Below are positions 5,395 through 57,800 of a stretch of DNA of 64,000 bases, one piece after another (position 1 is the first letter of the stretch; each line of letters begins with the position of its first letter). This DNA is from Nelumbo lutea. Its lineage: Eukaryota; Streptophyta; Magnoliopsida; Proteales; Nelumbonaceae. The notes beneath the pieces are model-generated. The model did no database searches and was not told the DNA's origin. It was given only the letters and a program-made list of their open reading frames with translations. The stretch is taken from positions 15,930,499 through 15,994,498 of the forward strand of contig JAKGHH010000006.1 in the NCBI GenBank assembly GCA_022828595.1, read 5' to 3'. The position numbers and the translations under genes were made by a program.

Positions 5395-8190
5395 CTACAG
5401 TTGTATAACCCGAAGGGGGATATCGTGATTATCACAATGCTCCTTCAATTCCTGTTGTATTTGGGCCAATTCCTCCTCATTGGACAACTCCTCTAACGGG
5501 AAGATAATCTCAGGTTCTGCACTCTCGTCTCTTGATTGATTCCCCAAGTCCTCACAGGCCCTAACTCCCCCAACCGGGGTTTCCGACTCAACAGGAACCC
5601 TAACATCTGAGACCCCACAGACTTCGGCATCACTAGCTATAGGCGGGACAGGAGCTTCCTCGCAACATACTGTCGTCTCAGAGCTAACAGGAGCCTCCTC
5701 CTGCCTCGCAGCATCAAGGACAATATCCCTAGGACCAATGCCCTTAGAGGCCTTAGGTATTGAACAGGGGGGCTGCGCTGATCTTAGCTCTTCTACTAGT
5801 TGCCTAATAACAGGGGTGATAGACACGACGGCAGGAACTGCTCGAAATAAATCCTGTGATTAAGCAACACACAATCAATTAGTAAAGTAAAACACAATAT
5901 CCTAATGTAGAATCATTTATGCATACCTCTTCAGACGCAACATGGGCCCCCGATGCCTCGGAGCTAGGACAAGCTCCATCAGCTTCCACACACTTCAACA
6001 CAAAAGATTATAAACAATTTAGCAACGATAACAAAAAACCAAGGCAGCAGAAACAACAAACAAAAAGTTTCAAAAGATGAAGCAAACTTACTATATCAGC
6101 TTCCCTAGGACGAGCTACTAGAACCTCCGCGTCCAATTGAATTCCACCGCTTTGTACAAACTACAAGAACGAGACCTCATTCTGTTAGTCGCGATAAAGT
6201 GAACCCAGAAGAAAGAGAAGAGGAAATAGAGGGGGACACATACCAAATCGCTATCTATGGGACCCAACTTTAGGTGTGGGGGGGCCTTCCTCTTCATTCG
6301 CCCACTCGAAAAGCGGACGATGGCACCCACAGAAGAGGGTGCCGGAACGGCCAAATCTACCTGCTCCATAGCTGGCATAGTCTTCTCCAATGGTGGCGAT
6401 GCTGCAGACCCCTGACCACCCTCAGCATGACCCTCCCGCGCATAGTCGCGGGCTAAAAAGAACGTGGAACCCTCACGGATCTTGGCCTCTTCGTAGGAGG
6501 AGGGGGACTACCCTCTCCCTCGTCCACAGTTGGTTGCTTCCCCTCACGCTTCGTTGGTGCCTTCCTTGGAGAACGAGGAAGAGGGACAGCTGCGTTGTCC
6601 CTTTGGTTAGCAGTGTGACACCTTCAGGGGGGGCCGATACATGACGAAGGCGGGGGCTCGTCTGCAACAGCTCCTGGAAGCCCTCGAACAATGCACAAAG
6701 ATGTGCGAGGTGCAGGGACTTACAACCCTGCACCCTCGCAAAACCCGCTAGAGGGAATCGCACATACCCAGAAAACATCCCGAACTGACGCAGCACCCGG
6801 TCTGGTCGGTACACGCACAACTGCGCCTCACCCATGCGATCAAGATATGTGATGACGCCGAGCCAAGTCACTAACCGCGCCACACTCACGGTAGCACTCT
6901 TCACATCTACCATGCATTGTTGGTCACCACCTTCTGGAACAGGTACGCCAACACAGAACGGCATGGTGTGAAACACCATCTGGGTGTACGGCCTCCATAC
7001 AAAGCCATTGAACGAAGCCAACTTCACATTGATATCGCTCATCTTAAACTATTTGTGTCTGCTGGATTGGATCCAACATTTTCCCCTGCATACCTCGAAC
7101 ACCTTCTCCTCAGCCCCATCACCGTCGAGAGTAGCATCGTGGACACGGATCGGAGACAGACGCCGCGGTGTGACGCTGAGGTCGAATCACTCATAGAGGA
7201 GCATCCACATGAACGGGGCACAAATATAACTGATGTGCCTCTTACAGCTAGGGTCATTGAGCTGCTGAACGGTATCGTCCAACCCTCGTACAAATATCCA
7301 AGCAACATAGATGCCAACGACAGCTGATGACCGTTGGCTGCAAGAACGGCTAGGGGGATGAAGACCGTGCAGATGCAATAATCAAGGACCCTTAGAAACA
7401 AGAACCGCGACGCCACATACAAAATATAGGCTGCAAGATGACACTGTGTGCCCGCGCCTTGCACCATGATGTCCCTCCCGCCACGAGACTCAAACCAGTA
7501 CTCCAACCACTGGTCCAATGGCATCTTTCCCCAAGCGGTGGATTGGTCCACCAATGCTTTATAAACAGAAACTTCCCCAAGAAGCTCCTCGTACTGCCCC
7601 CTCAAATCCACCGGAATAGATTCAATGTGCTGTAAATGCTGCACAGAAACAGAACCCCCAACTGGCAGCGCCAGCAGAGCCGCCACATCCTCGACGGTAA
7701 CGGTAAACTCCCCAAATGCACCTACAAAAGTGTGGGTACGACAGCACTAGTGCCTCAGTAGATGCCCGACATATTCGACCCCTTCCCGACCTGTGAGGTT
7801 TGTGTAACAATCCACGAATCTGAGAAGCGCACAGTATTGCAACATTCGGAAATACATTGGGTTTTCGAGAATGTACTGCGTGGGAGGCCACTTCTATCAG
7901 TTTGGGGTTCCTGACACTAATACCACATTGATGACTCTAGCCAATCGCAAAGACACATCAGCTCTGCGCAGATGATGACATCAAAAGACCCACCCTCGCC
8001 CCTGGACACCGGCATGGGAGGCCAGAAACCCTTCCCACCATCGGCCGCCATTGCCGCTTCTCTCTCCACCAAAAGCTCGGCGATATTGACTTCCCTAACG
8101 AAATCAGCGAGGACAGTCTGATTTTCCTTGGCGAGGGGCCCATGAGAGGAAGGGAATAGATGGGGCAAAGAAAGATGAGACAAGAAAGGG
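5395..8190 (-). pseudogene. Plant mobile domain (PMD) gene, broken, multi-exon
   Basis: Minus-strand gene relic. The N-terminal PMD part is at about 7686-7880 (NPMYFRMLQYCALLRFVDCY, then FTVTVEDVAALLALPVGG), the middle at 7290-7560 (TAWGKM, LAAYILYVASRFLF, LGYLYEGW), and the next exon at 6640-7042 holds the hallmark RPYTQM and YRPDRVLRQFGMFSGY. The C-terminal exon 5395-5850 is acidic and Pro/Glu-rich. AT-rich introns with CT...AC on the plus strand (GT-AG on minus) lie near 5853-5927, 6000-6095 and 6160-6245. In-frame stops occur near 7748 (TAG) and 7195 (TGA where Trp is expected), and the frame shifts near 7290. PMD proteins occur both as MAIN/MAIL-type host proteins and within transposons; which origin applies here is unknown. 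Confidence 0.72.
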
Positions 8191-26408: not shown

Positions 26409-27974
26409 TCATAAGGGGCCTAGATCCTTTACCTCAAATTTAGTGGCTAAGAATTTCTTCAGTCTTCGGATTTCAGCCTCCCAATCTCTTGTGATCACTA
26501 TGTCATCCACATACACATTAAGGGTTGCAATTTTACCTTCACCTCTTTTCACAAATAGAGTATGATCTGATTGGCATTGTTTGAACCCCATCTGTTGAAC
26601 TGCTAAATGAAACTTACTGAACCAAGCCCGAGGTGATTGTTTCAACCCATATAGAGATTTTTTCAACCTGCACACCTTTTGTTCACTGCCTTTGGCACAG
26701 AACCCTGGGGGTTGAGTCATGTACACTTCCTCTTCCAAGTCAACCTTTAAGAAAGCATTTTTGATGTCCAATTGGTGAAGACCCCAGTCAAGATTTGCTG
26801 CCAAGGAAAGAAGAATCCTGATAGAGTTCATCTTGGCTACTAGAGCAAAAGTCTCTGCATAGTCCACTTCATATACCTGTGTAAAGCCTCTTGTTTCCAA
26901 TCTAGCCTTGTACCTTTCAACAGTTCCATCAACCTTACGTTTCACTGTGAACACCCACTTGCACCCCACTGGTTCCTTCCCTTCAGGAAGGTCTACCAAC
27001 TCCCAAGTGCCATTTTTGTGTAAAGCATCAATTTCTTCTTGCATTGCATCTTTCCGTTTAGGTTTAGACAAAGCTTCTGCCACAGTCTTAGGAACGGGGA
27101 CACTGTCCACAGAAGAGAGAAAGTCACGGTATGAAGGCGAAACATGCTCATAGGACACAAAATTAGAGATAGGATGATTAGTGGTACAAGACCTAACACC
27201 CTTCCTCTTAGTAATAGGAATATTAAGATCATTGGTGACAGGTGAATCAACATTTAAAGGAACAAATATATCAATGGGAGCAAGTGTACCTAGTTGATGA
27301 GACGGATCTGCCTCGGGTGAATCCGATGATGTTGGTTGCAAAGTGTCAGGCTCCATGGCTCTTGAACTCTGTTGGCTCTTATGGTGACAATGAAAAACCC
27401 AGAATGAAGGAGGATCGGGTAAAGGAGGTAGTTGAATTTGAGTCGTCGCTTGTTTCTCCTCAACCCTACTCTCCCCATGAGGAGAAACCGAGAAAAAGGG
27501 TTGATTCTCAAAGAACGAGACATCAATGGAAACGCAGTACTTGCGAGCAATGGGATCATAGCAGCGATACCCCTTTTGAGATAAAGGGTAACCAAGAAAA
27601 ACACAAGGAATGGCCCGAGGATCAAGCTTACCACGAGTAGGGGACATGTTATGGACAAAACAACGACACCCAAAAACACCCATCAGAATGGTGGACAGCG
27701 GGGCTGTAGGGAACAAGAGCTGATGTGAGGCCTTATACTCTAGTAGCCGAGAGGGCATGTGATTGATGATATATGCCGGACACAAGACTGCATCCATCCA
27801 AAACTGTTTTGGCACATTCATATGAATCAACAAGCCACGAGCGACTTCGAGAAGGTGACGGTTCTTCTGTTCAGCCACACCATTTTGTTGGGGTGTCCTG
27901 GCACAACAGCTTCGCTGAAGTGACCCACTCGAAGCAAAAAACTTCGTGAGATCACTATGGAAATATTCCTTCAC
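26409..27974 (-). pseudogene. Copia integrase C-terminal half and reverse transcriptase
   Basis: A 521-residue open stretch. The N-terminal part has TPQQNGVAEQKNRHLLEVAR, the integrase region with the catalytic Glu, then VFLGYPLSQKGYRCYDP. The reverse transcriptase starts around residue 310 (ALHKNGTWELVDLPEGK, GCKWVFTVKRKVDGTVERYKAR) and has DIKNAFL, KSLYGLKQSPRAW and the YVDD catalytic box. It ends at a TGA inside DLGPL-YFLGIEV. A TAG at 27984-27986 cuts it off in frame from the integrase N-terminal half. Confidence 0.9.
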
Positions 27975-27983
27975 ATTGTCCGA

Positions 27984-46121: not shown

Positions 46122-46524
46122 TTAATAAAAGGGTAAATTACAAAGATCCTCCCTGTACTATGGGGTCTGTGACAAAGACCCCCTTGTACTTTGTTTTGCG
46201 ACAAAGACCCCCTATACTATAACCGTGAGAAAAGACCCCCCTTGACCGTTAAGTCAAATGACAAAATGCATTAAATTACCAAAATACCCCACTAAACTTC
46301 TTCTATTTTCTTTTTTTACCCTTTTTCTCTTAAAACCTATTTAACCTATTGTTTTCCCTTTCTTCTCTTCTTTTCCCCTCCCTCACCATCTTCTCTCATT
46401 CTTTTCTCTCTCCCAACTCTCCGAAATGAAAGGACGGAAGAAACCCATTTCTCATCTTCCCTTTATTCTCTTCTTTGTCTTCAATCTTGTCTCTATAGCT
46501 GTTGTGACGGTGCTGCGATCACGG

Positions 46525-47140
46525 GAAACATACTTGGACTGAGTGGGCTTCCCCAAAGGAGACTTATAGTCTACCCAGTAATGACCAATGCTTTTGCCAT
46601 TAACCCAAACCATGCCCTTGCCCAATATACTTGTTAGATTAGAGCGACTGGGTTGTCTCCTTCAGAAGCGTCGAAGTTCTGGAATGAGAAATTTTCATCT
46701 TATCTGTTACCATTCGTAGCTAGATATAAGTCGTAATAAAAGAAAAAGCAAAAACATCACACCAAATTCAGTCTGATCACTGATCAGATTCCAGTAGTAG
46801 TGGTTTCACGGTATGATACCTTGTACCATGTAAGAGCATATCCACCCCCCTTGGCCTCTTTCCACGATACCTTCTCTGTTGCCTTGGAATAAAGATTTGG
46901 TTCTTTTCTCCATCCACTCCAACCTGTGGCATGCGCCAAGCTTAATCCATTGGGTAGCTGCTACTCATGGACTATGAGATATATGGTGCAGTTTAAGCTT
47001 AGAAAGTTGATGCATGATTACCTGATGTCCCCATCCATTCGCCCATAGATCAAGTGTTCTAGTGTTCAAACCTTGGACAACTACACGATGAACACCAGCA
47101 GCAAGCCTAATTCTCAAGTAGGCTCCACTATCCTTTATTC
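46525..47140 (-). pseudogene. Beta-galactosidase (GH35) C-terminal region fragment, with introns
   Basis: Three minus-strand exons. Exon A (47022 to about 47140): DSGAYLRIRLAAGVHRVVVQGLN then LDLWANGWGHQ. Exon B (46820-46923): VGVDGEKNQIF, then after a frameshift SKATEKVSW and ALTWYK. Exon C (46525-46678): NFDASEGDNPVAL, then after another shift LGKGMVWVNGKSIGHYWV. These are consecutive blocks of the non-catalytic C-terminal domains of plant BGAL enzymes, which remove galactose from cell-wall polymers. The intron at 46924-47021 has GT-AG ends. The catalytic domain is absent. Intron retention shows capture from genomic DNA by the MULE. Confidence 0.82.
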
Positions 47141-47493
47141 AGAGAGAGAGAGATCTTTACTTAAGTTCCTTGTTTAAGATAAGAAAGAAAGGAAATTGAA
47201 CATTGCAAAATATATATTACTGGGAATCCGACTGTCATTCCTAACAATTGTATGTGGTTGGTCCCAGGTTTCAGGGGTACTGGTTTCTGGAATGTAGGGC
47301 TGTCAATTGGACGGGATTTGATCCAATCCGGTCCAGTCCAACATTGGTCCTTTTACAAATGGATTGGACCAAATCTGGTCCAAACCCCATACAAACTGGA
47401 TCCAGTCCACTCCAATTGAAATGCAAATGGACAGGATTGTACCCAATCCAATCCAAATTAAATGTTTTCCTCAAAAAATGTTTTCTATACTTA

Positions 47494-47645
47494 AAAATTA
47501 ACATAAAACGATATGATTGCATTTCACACAAGTAGTTTACTGCGTCATCTGATCTGATTTGAAAGCCATTAACGTCATCTGAAAGCCATTAAAAGTCAAC
47601 ATAAAGGGATATGATTTCATTTCACACAAGCAGTTTACTGCATCA
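47494..47645. repeat. Local direct duplication in the hAT element
   Basis: AACATAAA.CGATATGATT.CATTTCACACAAG.AGTTTACTGC near 47501-47542 recurs at about 47600-47642, separated by GAAAGCCATTAA words. Confidence 0.6.
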
Positions 47646-47689
47646 TCAGCCGGTTCAGTTGTGGGTCACTACCATTAACGTCTCAGTAA

Positions 47690-48330
47690 ACCTTCTCATC
47701 TCCGTGGCTCTATAGTAATCAATTATCAGGGATGATACCAGAATCTATTGGGAATTGTACTAAATTGGAAGAACTCTATCTTACTGAGAACTAGTTAGTT
47801 GGAGTTTTTCCTAAAAACCTAAACAATCTTCAATTCCTTGCTTACTTGTATGTCAGTTCGAACAGACTTGAGGGCAAGATAAAGTTGGGGGGTTTAGGTA
47901 GTTGCAGGAATTTGCAAGTGTTGGTCTTGACTTACAATCAATTTGATGGAGAAATACCATCAGGCTTGGGCAATTGCAGTGGCTTAAGATTCTTGGCAGC
48001 TCCGGGTAATAAATTAACAGGTCAGATCCCCTCTTCTTTTGGATTACTAACTAAATTGGAGCTACTTTACCTCAATGAGAACTCTTTGTCAAGGGTAATT
48101 CCACCAGAGATTGGGACCTGTAGTTTCTTGAAGGAATTCCTCTTGCAGAAAAACCAACTCGAAGGCAAAATTCCAAGTGAGTTGGGATCTTGGAGTAAAT
48201 TAGAGGAACTTGCGTTGTTTACAAACAGATTGACTGGAGAGATTCCAATAAGCATTTGGAAGATTCCAACCCTCAAATATCTCTATGTCTAGCAAAACAA
48301 TTTGTCTGGGGAATTACCTTTAGAGATTCC
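47690..48330 (+). pseudogene. LRR receptor-like kinase ectodomain fragment (PEPR-like, LRR XI)
   Basis: About nine 24-residue plant-type leucine-rich repeats (consensus LxxLxLxxNxLxGxIPxxLGxC), starting with SNQLSGMIPESIGNCTKLEELYLTEN and including LGGLGSCRNLQVL and IPSELGSWSKLEELALFTNRLTGEIP. The wording is closest, to my knowledge, to PEPR/LRR-XI receptors. A TAG interrupts repeat 2 near 47797, and another TAG lies near 48291. Signal peptide, transmembrane segment and kinase are absent. It is cargo of the hAT element. Confidence 0.8.
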
Positions 48331-48559
48331 ATCCCTCAATGTCAGTGATGATGAGGCAGAAAAGGGCCCTAAAGCCGCAAAGGCCTTGAGGGCTCAGGTG
48401 AATGTTGAAGAAAGAGATGAGAAGACTTCAAGTTCAAGTGGGAGTAGTGAGAACAACAGTGAGAATGGGAGTGGGAGTGGGAGTAGTAGCAGTGACAATG
48501 AAGCAGGTGATGAAAATTTATTCAATTCTATCTTAAATATCAAAGTAAGGTGGGGTTAA
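48330..48559 (+). pseudogene. Ser-rich acidic fragment fused after the LRR piece, origin unknown
   Basis: The reading frame continues from the LRR part across a junction near 48330 into an unrelated low-complexity segment: VSDDEAEKGPKAAKALRAQ, then a Ser/Gly/Asn/Glu-rich run and DENLFNSILN. The change of composition suggests a second captured source joined in frame. I do not recognise the family. Confidence 0.45.
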
Positions 48560-49533
48560 CTTTTATTTAAACACCCCAAATAACAGGTCTTGAGATACAA
48601 TAAAAACAAAAATGTGCTCTACAATTGGTCAAAGGGAAAAATAGAAAAAACAAGTAAAATGTTCCTCCACGTTAGGGAGCATATTTGGATCATGCAAGAA
48701 TATTTGTGCAGGGTGCTTCAGTGATTTTTACCTACGTTTGTATGGTCTCCAAACTCCCATTAATATCTTTTCATATCTTTTATAACTCTGGCTTGTAGAA
48801 TTTGACACAGGGCAGTAGCCCACTGCAGCCAATCCCTTATATACCATCAAATGGCTGATATCTACTTCCACAGGCTCTCTAATGAGAGCAACCCTTCAGA
48901 GCTTTTTTCTATTCTATGTACTTGTCAACACATGAACTTACCTTAGAGATCAAGTGTAAGACATCATATGCATAGACTTCACTTAAAGTGAAAGAGTAAA
49001 GAGCCCAAATTGAAAAAACAAATTTAACATCTGAAAGTATAGGCATCAAAGGTCAGAATATAAACAGGAAAATCAATTATTTTAGGCAAAAAAAACTTGA
49101 AATCTAATCAGTGACGATATTTTTTTTGTTAGGTATGTTAAAAACCAAATTTATTGGTCATGGTCCAATCAGTGAAGTGGATTTTTCAATTACATATCCA
49201 ACCTAATTTATTGTCCTAAAAGAAATAGAAAGCCTAACCCAAATGATCAAAACCTAGTAATCCCAAACAATAGTTAAATATATGCAGAGGATCAGATAAC
49301 TATGAATACAATTGGGAAAATGTTCAAAATATCACAATGTATCAGTGAACCCCTCTCAACGTAACTGTCAATACATACTGAACTGAACAAACAAAAAGAA
49401 AAAATAAATAAAAAACATTTTCCTTTGGAAACTCCCATTTTTCATATCATGAGTGTCTGTCTATACAATGAATCATGCATTTGGCTTTCTAAAATAGAAA
49501 AAGAAAATAAAAGAAAAAATCTGAATAAATCTA

Positions 49534-49764
49534 TCACTCTTTTAACTGAATCATGCATTTGTCTAGAATGACTCCCATAGGTACCCACAGTAGCACTACT
49601 GACACGTTTAATGGTGTAGGCCTTGCCACCGCCCGTCCATCGTGGAAGATTAATGGCTTCGGATAATCCTTTCTCGGCAAGGATGGGGCTTCTCCTCCAC
49701 CGGAACTAAGTATACTTCCTGCAAGTGACAATGGCTCAAATGTAGGGGAGAGAGCACATGGCAT
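49534..49764 (-). pseudogene. Glycerol-3-phosphate acyltransferase (GPAT) fragment
   Basis: A minus-strand frame with [11 protein letters not shown], then RPTPL and [10 protein letters not shown], the block that precedes the first membrane-associated segment and acyltransferase motif I of plant GPAT4/6/8-type enzymes of cutin and suberin synthesis. Only some 45 residues are recognisable; the preceding [14 protein letters not shown] is unassigned. The catalytic HX4D motif is not present. It lies inside the hAT element, opposite in strand to the LRR fragment. Confidence 0.6.
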
Positions 49765-50194
49765 CAGGCATGGTGAAATAACAAAATCAGGTGATCAAAA
49801 GAAATACCACTGTCCGCCGTTGAGACTGAGGATGGACCGATGGAGGTGCAGAGGTGTTGAACCCTAGCTTTCGAAAGCTTCCACACTTCATGCTTCAAAG
49901 TTCAAACGAAAATGAACATTAAACGGACCATTCGAACTAGTGGCTTGGTCTACTTTTAGTCCATTCTATGAATGTACTGACTATTCATGTTCGGACTAGT
50001 CCGCGCCCATATCATTTTTAGGACCGTCCAGTCTGTCCACATCACTTCTGATTCGGACGGTGTCCAACCCGAAACCGGTCCATTGACACCCCTACTGGAA
50101 TGTGAAAGCCTTTTCAATATGGCTGCCATGTTTAGATCCTGAAATCCGAAACAAGGAAAAGCAAATTGTAAGTTGTCTGTTCTTCATTTGCAAG

Positions 50195-50315
50195 GAAACG
50201 AAAACAGAGAAAAAACAAAGAAAATCGGAAAAAAGAAAGAAGAGGAGAGAAAGGGGAAGGGGAAGAAGAGAGATTGGGGGAGAGAGAAAGAGAGAGAGAG
50301 AGAGAGGGAGGACTT
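50195..50315. repeat. GA-rich microsatellite region
   Basis: GAAAAAAGAAAGAAG and GAGA runs with an exact GA array at about 50280-50310, in the right arm of the Pack-MULE. Confidence 0.7.
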
Positions 50316-50541
50316 CAACGGAAGTTCGCCACCGCTGCTATTCGTGTATCGTAAGGTTACTTAATAATCATTATAAAGTGGGGATTAAAAAATATTGTAA
50401 TGGCAGATTTTAACGAAAAGCTAACGGAAAGGGGTTTTTGTCTCACAGTCATAGGGGTCTTTGTTGCAAAACAAATTACAGGGGGTCTTTGTCACAAACC
50501 CCATAGTACAAGGGGGTCTTTGTAATTTACCCTTAATAAAA

Positions 50542-52100: not shown

Positions 52101-52233
52101 GGGCCCCCCTCGGGCCCTACCTTCCTCCACGCCATCCTTTGGATCCTGAGGTCGCATACTTCGCCTAGCTTAGTCGAGTTCCTTAGTCTGCTTCGTTCCG
52201 TCTTACTATAGTGAGTCCCAATCGCCGTTAGCC

Positions 52234-54055
52234 ATGTCTGGGTACCCACGTCATGTCTATCACAGGGGCGGTAGGCAGGATGATGATGCTCCCTCGAGCT
52301 CAGGGGGAGCCTGGGAGCGTATCCCGGAGGCTCGGGAAGCCTCTGGCGATACAACATCTACTTCTAGGGGAAGGGAGCCTGATACCTTTGGCCCTTCCTT
52401 AATGACAGTGGAGAGACTCATGTCTCTGATCTGCTACTTTTGTCTCCCAGGGGACCTGGTTTACAGCCTCCCTACTGGCAACTTCCCTTGGGAGCATGGT
52501 CCCAATGACATAGTAATCTTTCAAGAACAGCTCGAGGCTGGCTTGCGTCTCCCCCTGCACCCCTTGATAGTGGAGGTGCTAAATCATTTTAACATCACCA
52601 TTGACCAACTTCATCCCAACGCCATTCAAAACATGGTTGGGACTATATCTTTGTGTTACGAGTACTGTCTTCCTTTAGATCTTGATATTTTTGCTTCTAT
52701 CATTTGTATAAAGAATGCTGCTCCTGGGGTTCCTCCGGAGATGTGCTTTTATTACCTCTCCCCCGTCGCGACTATAAGCTCTTATACGAGTTGCCGAATA
52801 AGATTCCCGCCTGGAAGCGGGACTACTTTGTGGTCCATAACCCCGAGGGGTGGCCCTTTCCCACTACTTGGAAGGGCGCTATCCAGGACCCCGGGGTTGA
52901 GCTGGACCCTGAGACTCGGAAAATGATGTTGTCTTGGGCGTTGGTAGGCTTCCATTGCTCAGACTACTTAGCCAATGAGAAGCTCGTGCAAGCAGGCTTG
53001 AGCCCGGGTAGGTCGGTTTTTTAGGTCGCGTAGTGCCTTGCGACTTGTGTACACATGCATTTTGTTTATTATCGGACTAATACCTTGTGGTCTTGTGGCA
53101 ACCATCATGTCTAGTGCTGATTCGCGCTGCCTTCTCTCGGGCAGCCAGAGACGCCAAGTGAAGAGGACGCGCCCCGACCGAACCCTGCCTTCGGGAAGCA
53201 CTGAGTTCAGGTCCACCGAGTTGGTCCTTCCCTCTCCTTCGCCCGAGGTTCCAATGCCCCCCCCCTGAGAGGACTAGTGGGACTAACCCTGGGGGAAGCG
53301 AACTCCCCTAGTCAGGGGAGGTATCCTTCAGCCCCGTCCTTACCCTCGATTCCCAGTGGGAAACTGGGAAGGGGTAAATGATTATCTAGTAGCTCGCTGG
53401 AGGAGCCGGAAAGCAGTTACCAATGATACAATCGCTCAGTGGGGAAACATGGAGCCCGGGGATTTATCTGCGTTCGCCTCTGCTCACTGTATGGTGGTAA
53501 GTGACCTTTTTCCCTCTTCTCTCACTTTGCCCTTTCCTGTTGTCTTCTGATCTTTCTTTTTTTGCCGATAGGTAAATTCTGCCATTCATGCCATGGCTCT
53601 CCAGACACACATCCATCGTGTTGACGCTCTCGACCAGCGTGCTACCAACCAAAAGCTCCAAGTCGACCTCGACCGGATCCAGGGCGAGCTCCATCATACC
53701 CGCAAGGGGAGCGAGTCTCAGGAGCTGCTCGTCCATGACCAGGAAGCTCAAATCGCTCGGCTTACTGAAGAGAGCACACGCTACAGGGAGGAGTCATCGA
53801 GGATGGCGGGGGAGAGGGAGTTTCTCAGGCAACGGTCTGGGATTTTAAAGACTCCCAAGAATTTCATGACCTCCAGGTGGAGTATGGTTCGGGTTCATAC
53901 CATTCAGGGTTTAAGCTCTGCTGGTGGCTAGTTCAGAAGAAGTTCTACAGGCTCAACCTCAACGGCATTACTATGAAGGGTCTGTCTCCTGAGACAGCGG
54001 ACCAGGCGGATGAAGAGGAGCCTGATTCTCCGGAGGATGAGGAGGCGGATTCTTG
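52234..54055 (+). pseudogene. Antisense ORF of Tat element (putative gypsy-type transposon protein, PF04195-like)
   Basis: Encoded opposite to gag-pol. Exon 1 from ATG 52234: a polar N-terminus, then the core domain with LRLPLHPLIVEVLNHFNITIDQLHPNAIQNMVG. A single-base change in the C-run near 52757-52763 shifts the frame; the domain continues in the next frame (LPNKIPAWKRDYFVVHN, WPFPTTW). Intron candidates: GT at 53008 to AG near 53114, and GTAAGT near 53497 to TAG near 53570. The next exons are low-complexity and then form a coiled coil (MALQTHIHRVDALDQRA..., 53593-53850). Such antisense genes are described in Tat elements; their function is unknown. An additional stop at 53266 also breaks it. 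Confidence 0.75.
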
Positions 54056-54860
54056 AGGTGGCGTTTCTCTGGGCTTCTGTGGCTTCCGGGTGCCATAAAC
54101 CCGGTCTTTCACAAGTTGTTAGTTGGGCGGTTGTGCCTTATGATGATGGAACCTTTTCCGAGCTGTTTATCTTGGTTATTGCACTTGTCATTTTTTTTTG
54201 AATGAAAGTTTCTCCCTTCTTCTGAGTATGATGGACTTCCTTTGTATTTACTAAAGCAATCTCATCACTTGAACTGTTAAAGTTACATACTTGAAGTAGG
54301 GCTCTTTGGTAGGCGTTATCCCGATTTGTCACATTTAAGGCCTCTATGTTATATCACAGAGTGATTACAACGTATGCCCGAGCTAAGCATTGGTTGGCTA
54401 TTTCTCAGTTCGACCAACGTATCGGGATGAACTATGCTTCACGGGGTTTAAACCCGAGCTACTTATGCTTTTAATATTTCATACCTTGCCTTTGCCACTA
54501 AAGTGTCTTTTCTTCATGCTGAGGTCTTTGTTAGCTCGGTGTTTTGGCCCTTAGGCTTTGGGAGGGACCCGTAGTCCGCTCTTGGATTTCTCCCAAGCCG
54601 AAGTGGCGACTGGGGTCTTCTTATGCTGAGGTCACATTAGCTCGGTATTCTGGCCCTTAGACTTTGGAAGGGACGCGTGGTCCGCTTGATTTTTACAGGT
54701 AATATTGCCTTAGGTTGACAATATTCCATGCTCGAGGTACTTGTTTCCCTTCGAGGGTCTTGAGCTCATATGCTCCTTCCCCGAGCACTCGTTTCACTCT
54801 GTAAGGACCTTCCCAGTTGGACTTGAGCTTGCCAGCATCGGGCTCAGGCACCATAACTTT
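54056..54860. other. Tat non-coding spacer
   Basis: Between the antisense gene and the end of pol. It has repeated GAGGTC..TTAGCTCGGT.TT.TGGCCCTTAG.CTTTGG phrases at about 54520-54570 and 54629-54670, a diverged direct duplication of about 110-bp period. Confidence 0.5.
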
Positions 54861-54890
54861 ACGAAGGGCCGGGTCGCCAACACGGAGGTT

Positions 54891-55680
54891 TCACCTCTTG
54901 ACCCTGGCGTTATAGTACCGAGCTACCCTCTGCTGGTAGGCTGCGGTCCTAATGTACGCGAGGTCCCTCACTTCGTCGAGTAGGTCGAGGTTGGTACGTA
55001 GCTCATCTTCATTTGTTTGCTCGTTGTATGCTTCCAGGCGCAACGTAGGTACTTCGATCTCTGTGAGAATCATTGCTTCAGTGCCGTAGGTGAGATTGAA
55101 GGGTGTTTCTCCCGTGGCGGTCTTCTTCATGGTTTGGTACGCTCATAAGACACTGGGTAGTTCATCTACCCACAATCCTTTAGCTCGGTCTAGCCATGCC
55201 TTTAGTCCGTGGAGGATGGCTCTGTTCATGACTTCTGCCTAACCGTTTGCTTGAGGGTGTGTGACTGAAGTAAAGTTCTGTTGGATCCTCATGTCTCTAC
55301 ACCAATCTTGAAATTTGATGTCCTTGAACTGTTTGCTATTGTCGAAAATCAATACCCGAGGTAGTCCGAAACGGCATACGATGTTCTTCCAAAAGAAGTT
55401 TTGGACATTTCGGGCTGTGATCGTCACGAGGGGCTCGACTTCTACCCACTTGGTAAAATAGTCCACTGCCACTACTAAGAACTTTCTTCCACCCGTTGTT
55501 GGCGGGAATGGCCTGAGTAGATCGATGCCCCACTGCACAAAGGGCCACGGGCTGGTGAGGTATGTGAGGTCGGTAGTGGGTTGGTGGTGAATATTGACAT
55601 GTCTCTGGCATTTGTCACATTTTCTGACGAGCTCAATAGCGTATGCCTTCATTGTTGGCCAATAGTACCCTTATCGAAGG
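54891..55680 (-). pseudogene. Tat integrase
   Basis: Zinc-binding part CDKCQRH (near 55620), catalytic core with WGIDLLRPFP (first Asp) and FDNSKQF (second Asp, usual form DNGxQF), THPQANG before the Glu region, and the downstream ETPFNLTYGTEA block at 55080-55110. In-frame stops are TAG at 55239-55241 (expected Gln after NG) and TGA at 55143-55145 (expected Trp). Integrase would insert the DNA copy; this one cannot be made full length. Confidence 0.88.
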
Positions 55681-55766
55681 GCCTTTTGGGCAAGGGCCCT
55701 GGCCCCCAAGTGTGCACCACACAGACCCTCATGGATGTCATGGAGTACGAGCTTGGCTTCGGTAGG

Positions 55767-56768
55767 TCACAAGCAGTGCAAGTAGGGGAGCGTGTAAGAT
55801 CTCCGATATAGTTGTTCGTCTATCATGACGCATTTGGCTGCCTGGCGCTGCACCCTTCTAGTTGCATTGCGGTCTGCAGGGAGGGTCCTGTGTAGTAAGA
55901 AGTTCGCGAGCGGGTCAATCCAGCTTGGCAATGCTTGAACGACGGGAGCGACCTCCTCTGCCCCCTTGAGAATGCTAGGCCGAGGCAAGTCCTCTATGTA
56001 CACGGTTCTCATAGTGATGTCGCTGGTGCTGGCTAGACTAGACAGGGTGTCGGCCTCGGCGTTCTCTGATCTAGGGATTTGTCTAATAAAGTGTGACTGG
56101 AAGTTGAGCAGGGCCTCTCTAACTTTGGCTAAGTAGGCGATCATGGCTGGCTCGCGAGCTTCGTACTCGCCGGTGACCTGGTTGACCACAAGCTGGGAGT
56201 CGTTGCAGATAACGATGTGCTTGGCTTTTACTTCTCTGGCTAGAGCTAGTCCAGCTATCAACGCCTCGTATTCTGCTTCATTGTTGGATGCCTCGAACTC
56301 GAAGCGTAGCGCGTACTCCAGTTTTATGCCGCTTGGGCCGTGTAGAACTATTCCGGCACCGCTGCCCTGTTGGTTCGAGGAGCCATCTACGTGAAGGATC
56401 CAGGGCTCCTCATCCCAGCTCGCGGTTGGCCGAGCTAGGAGAGGTGCCACACTAGCTACTACTTCACGGGGTTCGGACTCGACCGATCCGGGATCTCCAG
56501 GCTCACTCGAGGTGGGAGCCTCGCGCTCAACCGGACTAGGAACTTCGGAGATGAATGTGCATTCGACTATGAAATCTACTAAGGCTTGGGCCTTAATGGC
56601 AGTTCGTGCCTTGTACTGGAGGTCGTACTCACTGAGCTCAATGGCCCACTTCGTCAACCGACCAGAGACCTCGGGCTTAAGCAAGACTTGCCTCAGAGGT
56701 TTGTCGGTAAGGACGATAACAGTATGAGCTTGGAAGTACGGGCAGAGCTTCTGAGCTGCAATTATCAA
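55767..56768 (-). pseudogene. Tat reverse-transcriptase end and RNase H (two RNase H-like parts)
   Basis: A 333-residue open stretch. The start (VIVLTDKPLRQVLLKPEVSGRL, KWAIELSEYDLQY) is the degraded RNase H following the reverse transcriptase. The second, complete RNase H has HVDGSSN (Asp), NNEAEYEALIAGL (Glu), NDSQLVVNQV (Asp) and ENAEADTLSSLA (Asp), keeping all catalytic residues. A duplicated RNase H of this type is a hallmark of Tat elements. Stops lie just before 56768 and after 55767. Confidence 0.9.
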
Positions 56769-57005
56769 TGCGTATGCTAGCTTCTCAATCTCCGAGTATC
56801 TCGTTTCTGCTCCCTACATTACTTTACTAACATAATAGATGGGTCGTTGGACCCGATCTCCTTCCTTTATTAGTACCAAACTGACCACTTCATCGCTCGT
56901 TGAGAGGTACAACTCTAAAACGTTGCCCTCCTCGGGCCGGATTAAGATTGGCACACTAGAGAGGTAATTCTTGAGCTTGTCAAATGCGAGCTGACAGTCT
57001 CGGGT

Positions 57006-57800
57006 CTACTCAAACCCTTTGCTCTTGATTGCCTTAAAGAACGACAGACAGCGGTCCGTCGATTTGGACATGAAGCGGCTTAGGGCGGCTATGTGGCCAT
57101 TCAACCTCTGAACCTCCTTCAACTTACGGGGTGGTCTCATGTCTAAGATGCCCTTAACCTTATCTGGGTTGGCTTCAATGCCGCGCCGGTTAATGATGTA
57201 TCCCAGGAATTTACCTGAGGTCACGCCGAACACACACTTGTTCAGATTTAATCTCATGTTAAACTTATGCAAAATTTCAAAAACAGAATGCAAGTCTTGT
57301 ATTAATTCATATGAGAATTGAGTTTTGATGACCATGTCGTCTACATAGCATTCTACTTTTCTACCGATTAACGGCTCAAACAATTTATTTACAAGTCTCT
57401 GAAAGGTTGCCCCTGCGCTTTTCAACCCGAAGGGCATAACCTTGTAACAGTAGAGGCCGAACTCTGTGATGAAGGCAGTCTTTTCTTCATCTGACGGGTC
57501 CATCTTGATCTGGTTATAGCTCGAATAGGCGTCCAAGAAGCTGAGCAACTCATGCCCTGAGGTCGCGTCCACCAAACGGTCGATTCGGGGGAGCGAGAAG
57601 CAGTCTTTCAGGCAAGCCCGGTTCAGGTCGGTGTAGTCGACACACATGCGCCACTTGTCGTTGGCCTTCTTTACTAGGACGGGGTTGGCTACCCAACTCG
57701 GGTAGTGGACTTCTCTTATGAAGCCCGCTGTGAGGAGCTTTTAGACTTCTTCGTCGACCGCTTTCCACCGCTCCGGGTATAGGTTGCATTTCTTTTGTCT
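57006..57800 (-). pseudogene. Tat reverse transcriptase
   Basis: WRMCVDYTDLNRAC, SFLDAYSSYNQIKM, FGLKSAGATFQRLVN and the catalytic CYVDDMVIKT are all present in 57006-57680. The upstream part AGFIREVHYPSWVANPV is cut off by TAA at 57741-57743, where Gln is usual, so full-length polyprotein cannot be read. Confidence 0.9.

What the first reader, a model, noticed from the sequence alone, without database searches (positions are those of the whole stretch)
47295..50094. hAT-type element carrying three gene fragments, nested in a Pack-MULE
hAT ends with exact CTGGAATG duplication enclose LRR-kinase (+), Ser-rich (+) and GPAT (-) pieces. Gene capture is well known for Mutator, CACTA and Helitron elements but is reported far less for hAT. 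Here a hAT carrier sits inside a MULE carrier, giving a composite with pieces of at least four loci.
Basis: partly seen in the sequence, partly recalled or inferred. Interest (0 to 1): 0.9.

Follow-up and report, generated by a model that had tools for sequence, protein, structure and literature searches.

The report
Gene-carrying hAT transposon inside a Pack-MULE
A small plant jumping gene of the hAT type carries broken pieces of several host loci and has itself jumped into another jumping gene that carries a piece of one more; it is a real, well-preserved example of a known kind of gene shuffling, and the pieces look like decaying passengers rather than a working new gene.

Summary
Confirmed. 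The window lies in an 844-Mb genome, by its GPAT gene a Nelumbo (lotus). At 47295-50094 sits a 2,800-bp hAT with exact 8-bp duplications (CTGGAATG), inside a beta-galactosidase piece carried by a MULE at 46131-50532 (9-bp duplication). The empty site, with one CTGGAATG, is found in two other MULE copies and a beta-galactosidase gene-like locus. At least 15 other copies exist; of 13 with both ends, 9 have matching flanks against 2 of 156 crossed pairs. They share the cargo junctions, so the cargo was assembled once and amplified in a star-like burst. Cargo: PEPR1-like LRR-kinase piece, Ser-rich gene 3' end, snoR101-region piece, an unidentified piece, GPAT piece with intron. A chromosome-2 relative combines the same left end with the Ser-rich and snoR101 pieces but lacks LRR and GPAT, implying stepwise loading. 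The in-frame LRR/Ser-rich fusion decays neutrally. Gene capture by hAT is in print for grapevine, maize and rice: a new, well-documented member of a known kind.

The parts
46122..46130 (.). 9-bp target duplication TTAATAAAA of the MULE, left
46131..50532 (.). Pack-MULE, terminal inverted repeats about 110 bp with gaps (GGGTAAATTACAAAGA...)
   Evidence: the stretch near its left end recurs genome-wide
46528..47294 (-). beta-galactosidase gene piece with introns, part 1 (carried by the MULE)
   Evidence: Pfam PF21467 E 1e-8 on the frame 46452-46661; weak PDB match to beta-galactosidases, best E 0.006; matches on C5, C8, C4 that lack the MULE end start at 46528; open frame across the hAT site
47287..47294 (.). 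target duplication CTGGAATG, left copy
   Evidence: single copy at empty sites
47295..50094 (+). hAT element, 2,800 bp, no transposase found in the frames scanned
47295..47693 (+). left end region: terminal repeat, GGTCC/TGGAC-rich subterminal stretch and about 98-bp-spaced tandem units; shared (in parts) with the C2 and C3 relatives that have other interiors
47699..48328 (+). LRR receptor-kinase (PEPR1-like) piece; best donor C8:32939867-32940496
48329..48338 (+). 10-bp filler between LRR and Ser-rich pieces, shared by the copies
48339..48733 (+). 3' end of a Ser-rich acidic protein gene with 3' flank; open exon at C4:30713877, longer fragment at C2:91634213
48725..49153 (-). piece matching the snoR101-type stretch of the C2 relative; from 48915 on it also matches the intact snoR101 locus C5:86270013 at 78%
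48887..48962 (-). degenerate snoR101 box C/D snoRNA match, 40.7 bits against a cut-off of 40, broken near its 3' end
49171..49546 (+). unidentified piece, 74% like C5:40709831
49560..49798 (-). GPAT piece (intron end plus exon); donor C3:84092079-84092322
49799..50094 (+). right end region and terminal repeat; 49795-49888 recurs at other loci
50095..50102 (.). target duplication CTGGAATG, right copy
50103..50164 (-). beta-galactosidase piece, part 2, continuous with part 1 at empty sites
50533..50541 (.). 9-bp target duplication TTAATAAAA of the MULE, right

Best explanation
A non-autonomous Pack-hAT element gathered pieces of at least four host loci in steps and was then copied by a hAT transposase acting in trans, in one burst, to at least 16 copies. 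One copy inserted into the beta-galactosidase piece carried by a Pack-MULE, duplicating CTGGAATG. Shown: ends, duplications, empty sites, donors, shared cargo junctions, star-like tree, neutral decay. Inferred: mobilisation in trans by a hAT transposase, the order of loading (Ser-rich and snoR101 pieces first; LRR, unidentified piece and GPAT later), and how new DNA got between the ends (aberrant repair, or joint mobilisation of neighbouring hAT copies).
For: Ends and TSD. Empty sites. 15 further copies, 86-95% identical over the matched stretches; own flank pairs 9 of 13 at 7/8 or better against 2 of 156 crossed. Same cargo junctions in the copies that span them, barring later indels. Donors: C8 LRR-RLK with a 769-aa open frame, best PDB match PEPR1 E 1.8e-220; C4 Ser-rich exon; C3 GPAT, Pfam PF01553, 212 of 218 aligned residues identical to a Nelumbo nucifera GPAT outside an unspliced intron. 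Intron DNA in the GPAT piece and intron-separated frames in the beta-galactosidase piece point to capture from DNA. Copies average 94.7% identity in the LRR piece and are each 90-92% like the donor. Star-like tree. C2 locus: left end at 89-95%, Ser-rich and snoR101 pieces with more donor sequence than the element keeps, no LRR or GPAT match, and hAT transposase domains (PF05699 7.9e-18, PF14372 1.3e-19, PF02892 1.3e-5). C3:29273908: same left end, interior partly shared with C2.
Against: Two of 13 copies (L034, L037) show no target duplication. L038 and L039 share flanks and a pair branch, so they look like one insertion duplicated with its surroundings. No intact transposase with these very ends was recovered; the C2 transposase is split over several frames and its right side runs into a dispersed repeat. 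Of 20 sites bearing the 18-bp end, 9 have a partner end at 160-739 bp and the other 11 none by the criterion used, so the cargo-carrying lineage is a small branch of the family. The loading order rests on two loci, one of them read only in part.
Confidence: 0.94

Rival explanations
1. The two hAT ends are unrelated half-elements and the 8-bp repeat is chance; the gene pieces belong to the MULE.
For: CTGGAATG occurs six times in the window, within what shuffles give.
Against: Empty sites in two MULE copies and a beta-galactosidase gene-like locus; 15 copies of the same unit elsewhere, most of those with both ends having other duplications.
Confidence: 0.01
2. The cargo was taken up by fusion of neighbouring hAT copies: two hATs flanking host DNA move as one unit (the tandem-insertion model published for Pack-CACTA and extended to Pack-hAT).
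For: At C2 the left end, Ser-rich and snoR101 pieces, a hAT-type terminal-like stretch, a transposase and a piece of the right end lie in the same order and orientation as their counterparts in the element; the rows shown keep, with point differences, a 17-bp stretch around GGTCCAAT between snoR101 and the next piece. Model read in PMC8903248 section 9.
Against: The terminal-like stretch at C2 also matches the interior of about 400-bp family members, so it need not be a true end; C2 may be one long element. The 17-bp stretch is too short to prove a former end.
Confidence: 0.4
3. The cargo was taken up by error-prone repair after excision, copying pieces from elsewhere (gap repair with template switches).
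For: Short filler (10 bp) between LRR and Ser-rich pieces and a shared TTTTT at the Ser-rich/snoR101 junction; best donor matches on four chromosomes.
Against: Does not by itself explain the shared order with the C2 locus.
Confidence: 0.45
4. The LRR/Ser-rich in-frame fusion is a new gene kept by selection.
For: Open over 267-282 codons in 3 of the 15 rows tested (L029, L038, L039), 224 in L030; naive pooled dN/dS between copies 0.59 (LRR) and 0.42 (Ser-rich), 0.54 among the four open copies.
Against: With a composition-matched control over 14 rows, 206 single-copy changes give 55 synonymous against 55.9 expected and 13 stops against 11.3 expected; 11 of the 15 rows have no open run above 165 codons.
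Confidence: 0.03

Closest known systems
Pack-hAT elements of maize and rice (Gisby and Catoni 2022, PMC8903248; outline, passages and section 9 read)
   Same: hAT ends, 8-bp duplication, host gene pieces, multicopy clusters
   Different: Here donors, empty sites and a partly loaded relative are shown for one family, the cargo comes from at least four loci, and one copy is nested in a Pack-MULE; genus Nelumbo
Maize Ds2 and Ds-l4 elements with gene pieces (PMC3260210; passages read)
   Same: hAT elements with captured gene sequence including introns; a compound element is also described
   Different: The cargo elements named in the passages read are each described with one gene or gene piece
Hatvine-6 of grapevine (PMC2528002; passages read)
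   Same: hAT family with shared ends and variable interiors, often gene-derived
   Different: Those elements share a transposase coding sequence; this one lacks it
Pack-MULEs of sacred lotus (1,447 reported in PMC4053705; passages read)
   Same: The enclosing element is of this kind; the paper also reports hAT at nearly 7% of the genome
   Different: The passages read describe no gene capture by hAT

Membership tests
hAT superfamily, non-autonomous | short terminal inverted repeats of hAT type | tested here: met
   TAGGGCTGTCAAT / TAGGGGTGTCAAT; the 18-bp end pattern occurs 668 + 653 times in the genome, 0 in the reversed control
hAT superfamily, non-autonomous | 8-bp target site duplication | tested here: met
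   exact in the window; 9 of 13 copies at 7/8 or better against 2 of 156 crossed pairs; empty sites
hAT superfamily, non-autonomous | hAT transposase encoded by an autonomous relative with the same ends | tested here: inconclusive
   C2 relative with the same left end region has degraded BED, RNase-H and dimerisation domains; its right side runs into another repeat
Pack-TYPE (Pack-hAT) | host gene pieces whose donors lie elsewhere in the genome | tested here: met
   LRR C8, Ser-rich C4/C2, snoR101 region C5, GPAT C3
Pack-TYPE (Pack-hAT) | no transposase gene inside | tested here: met
   longest stop-to-stop frame inside is the 165-codon LRR piece; no transposase domain in the 5 inside frames scanned or the one added; the shorter frames were not scanned
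Pack-TYPE (Pack-hAT) | cargo transposed together with the ends | tested here: met
   same cargo with distinct duplications at many sites
Pack-MULE (enclosing element) | long TIRs, 9-bp duplication, host gene piece | tested here: met
   about 110-bp TIRs, TTAATAAAA, beta-galactosidase piece
Pack-hAT | current mobility with a hAT transposase | not testable with these tools
   needs an excision assay
Helitron | no target site duplication (recalled criterion) | tested here: not met
   8-bp duplication and empty site

The most novel reading that the evidence does not exclude
The C2 locus is a frozen intermediate: a hAT that carried both its transposase and the first captured pieces. The amplified Pack-hAT arose from such an element by loss of the transposase and addition of LRR and GPAT pieces, so the steps of gene capture by hAT can be read and dated in this genome.
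Probability: 0.35. Interest if true: 0.6.

Novelty: new member of a known kind. Interest (0 to 1): 0.42.

Why it matters
It gives a nearly complete set of evidence (ends, duplications, empty sites, donors, copies, a partly loaded relative) for multi-locus capture by a hAT element, in a genus reported to be unusually rich in hAT. It makes the open question of how cut-and-paste elements pick up host DNA testable by dating the junctions. It also shows that such cargo can be amplified to at least 16 copies without detectable selection for a protein.

Tried and rejected
Chance or half-element reading: rejected by empty sites. Functional chimeric gene: rejected by the singleton test; naive dN/dS of 0.59 and 0.42 between copies and 0.43 and 0.31 against the donors is told here because taken alone it would mislead. 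Amplified working snoRNA: the Rfam match in the window is just over the cut-off (40.7 against 40), but in the genome search the window scores 35.2, 13 other hAT copies 29-35 (model positions up to 51) and the C2 locus 34.9 (1-55), while the C5 locus alone passes with 63 bits over 1-65 (68 of 107,620 candidates scored); not pursued. Tandem pair at C2 as a proven intermediate: I first read the terminal-like stretch there as a true right end, then found it inside about 400-bp family members and withdrew the claim; the MULE start in the notebook entry is off by one and was corrected. Protein search with the LRR piece returned plant-type LRR proteins of limited use because of its length window. A protein domain for the Ser-rich gene was sought: Pfam gave only a sub-threshold match (AF-4), and the frames of the 2.7 kb upstream (L054) showed nothing that I could recognise; that it resembles a plant ELL-associated factor is recalled, not tested. 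The label beta-galactosidase for the C5 locus rests on its match to the MULE piece and on an upstream exon-like frame recognised by eye; Pfam found nothing in the two L050 frames scanned. A genome search with the right end region (window:49799-50094) did not complete, so left and right ends were not paired genome-wide.

Control on other users of the same end: 20 of the 1,321 sites (the first 20 of the 100 listed, all on C1) were taken; 9 of 20 had a partner end with a duplication of at least 7/8, lengths 160-739 bp, and 0 of 20 with the duplication reversed; 11 of 20 stayed without a partner by this criterion.

Full report
Setting. The window is G000:C6:15930499-15994498 of an 843.66-Mb genome in 63 contigs. 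The GPAT donor in this genome has as its best match a Nelumbo nucifera GPAT1-like protein, with 212 of 218 aligned residues identical outside an unspliced intron, so I take the genus to be Nelumbo. The passages read of the sacred lotus paper report hAT at nearly 7% of the genome with more than 100,000 copies and 1,447 Pack-MULEs (PMC4053705).

Observation. At 47295-50094 lies a 2,800-bp unit with hAT-type ends and exact CTGGAATG on both sides. Around it, at 46131-50532, lies a MULE with about 110-bp inverted repeats and an exact 9-bp duplication TTAATAAAA. The MULE carries a beta-galactosidase piece on the minus strand (Pfam PF21467 E 1e-8; weak PDB matches to beta-galactosidases, best E 0.006), in several frames that look like exons with introns between them. 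With the hAT and one CTGGAATG left out, an open frame runs through the insertion point.

Empty sites. The joined flanks align without interruption across the junction to a MULE copy on C2 (L049), one on C6 (L053) and a beta-galactosidase gene-like locus on C5 (L050), each with a single CTGGAATG. L050 matches only the gene part, and a frame upstream looks like the next exon, but Pfam found nothing in the two L050 frames scanned. I infer that the hAT entered this MULE copy after the MULE had captured its piece.

Copies. A search with the hAT interior gave 46 matches (40 of 43 candidates scored), among them 15 other copies that I fetched. Eight of the 15 cover the whole 2,251-bp query; the others are truncated or internally deleted. 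Of 13 copies with both ends (window included), 9 have flanks agreeing at 7 or 8 of 8 positions (L029 after moving its right end by 4 bp), against 2 of 156 crossed pairs. L032 is a further exact case once its end is placed at TAGGGTTATCAAT; L031 shares seven bases out of register; L034 and L037 show none. L038 and L039 share flanks and pair in the tree, so they probably reflect one insertion copied with its surroundings.

One assembly, one burst. Cargo junctions are the same in the copies that span them, apart from indels. Copies are on average 94.7% alike in the LRR piece, 94.2% in the Ser-rich piece and 93.7% in the GPAT piece, while each of the 15 rows with the LRR piece is 90-92% like the LRR donor. 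The tree of 15 rows is star-like: terminal branches 0.009-0.042, internal ones at most 0.003 except the L038/L039 pair at 0.016 (L043 left out).

Donors. LRR: C8:32939867-32940496, 91%, in a 769-aa open frame whose best PDB match is PEPR1; three other long matches lie at 78-80%. Ser-rich: C4:30713877, 90%, an open exon ending in a stop. GPAT: C3:84092079, 89%, with Pfam PF01553 in the open frame; the piece begins in sequence absent from the protein and runs through a CAG end into the exon. snoR101 region: the intact snoRNA is at C5:86270013-86270076 (63 bits); the hAT copies hold a broken version. A further 376-bp piece resembles C5:40709831 at 74% and was not identified.

Stepwise loading. 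The left end region recurs at C2:91636181-91636437 (40 of 939 candidates scored). That locus, read over 7 kb, has the left end (89-95%), 1.5 kb of other DNA, the Ser-rich piece, 106 bp, the snoR101 piece, a subterminal-like stretch, a hAT transposase in pieces (BED, RNase-H and dimerisation domains) and a 94-bp piece of the right end (82%). Its Ser-rich piece extends beyond the element's on both sides when compared with the C4 gene, so it cannot descend from the amplified element. It has no LRR or GPAT match. A third locus, C3:29273908, has the left end followed by a stretch 83% like part of the 1.5 kb of C2; its right end was not reached. So the same left end goes with at least three interiors. 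Whether C2 is one long element or a tandem pair is undecided, since the terminal-like stretch also occurs inside short family members.

Family background. The 18-bp end pattern occurs 668 + 653 times in the genome and 0 times in the reversed control. Of 20 such sites taken, 9 have a partner end with a near-exact duplication, at 160-739 bp, mostly near 400 bp; 11 have none by this criterion.

Function. The LRR and Ser-rich pieces are joined in frame, open over 267-282 codons in three of 15 rows. Naive dN/dS is below 1 (0.59 and 0.42 between copies). But among 206 changes unique to one copy, 55 are synonymous against 55.9 expected from composition, and 13 are stops against 11.3 expected (14 rows, L042 and L043 left out). 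The cargo behaves as decaying passenger DNA.

Literature. Gene pieces in hAT elements are described for grapevine Hatvine-6 (PMC2528002, passages), maize Ds2 and Ds-l4 (PMC3260210, passages) and Pack-hATs in maize and rice (PMC8903248, outline, passages and section 9). A search for 'Pack-hAT' found two papers, the second (PMC8277862, on metazoans) seen in the listing only. Searches aimed at lotus (the listings show 10-15 papers each of 21 to 2,586) showed none that I could recognise from title and abstract start as reporting hAT capture there; a 2022 lotus transposon paper that I recall was not seen. The 2026 review PMC13317346 has no occurrence of 'hAT' in its main text but cites the 2022 Pack-TYPE paper. 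In the listings I saw no report of a Pack-hAT nested in a Pack-MULE, and 'nested' does not occur in PMC8903248; still, nesting of two common element types is expected. Passages of the wheat 3B paper (PMC4290129) concern CACTA capture.

Verdict. The object is a genuine, unusually well documented Pack-hAT nested in a Pack-MULE, of a known kind. Its main extra value is the partly loaded relative, which makes the order of capture testable.

Noticed in passing
window 48887-48962 (-): Rfam snoR101 match inside the hAT, just over the cut-off; broken near its 3' end in the hAT copies, with the intact locus at C5:86270013.
   Followed up: partly
window 47491-47647: 98-bp-spaced tandem units in the hAT left end; overlapping BLAST pieces suggest that their number varies between copies.
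   Followed up: no
L055 (C2:91636001-91636600): A different hAT-like end (GGCCCGG-rich, ending ATGAACACCCCTA) abuts the left end of the C2 relative.
   Followed up: no
L017 (C1:13045764): A 160-bp element that is little more than the two ends of the family joined; its right end is 95% like that of the Pack-hAT.
   Followed up: no
window 52174-57740: Retrotransposon pieces next to the MULE: gypsy-type PF04195 (52174-52926), RNase H (55767-56813, -) and RVT_1 (57006-57740, -).
   Followed up: no
window 26409-27983 (-): 524-aa frame with RVT_2-type reverse transcriptase (PF07727).
   Followed up: no
window 6473-7746 (-): Two frames matching the plant mobile domain (PF10536), one above and one below the family cut-off.
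   Followed up: no
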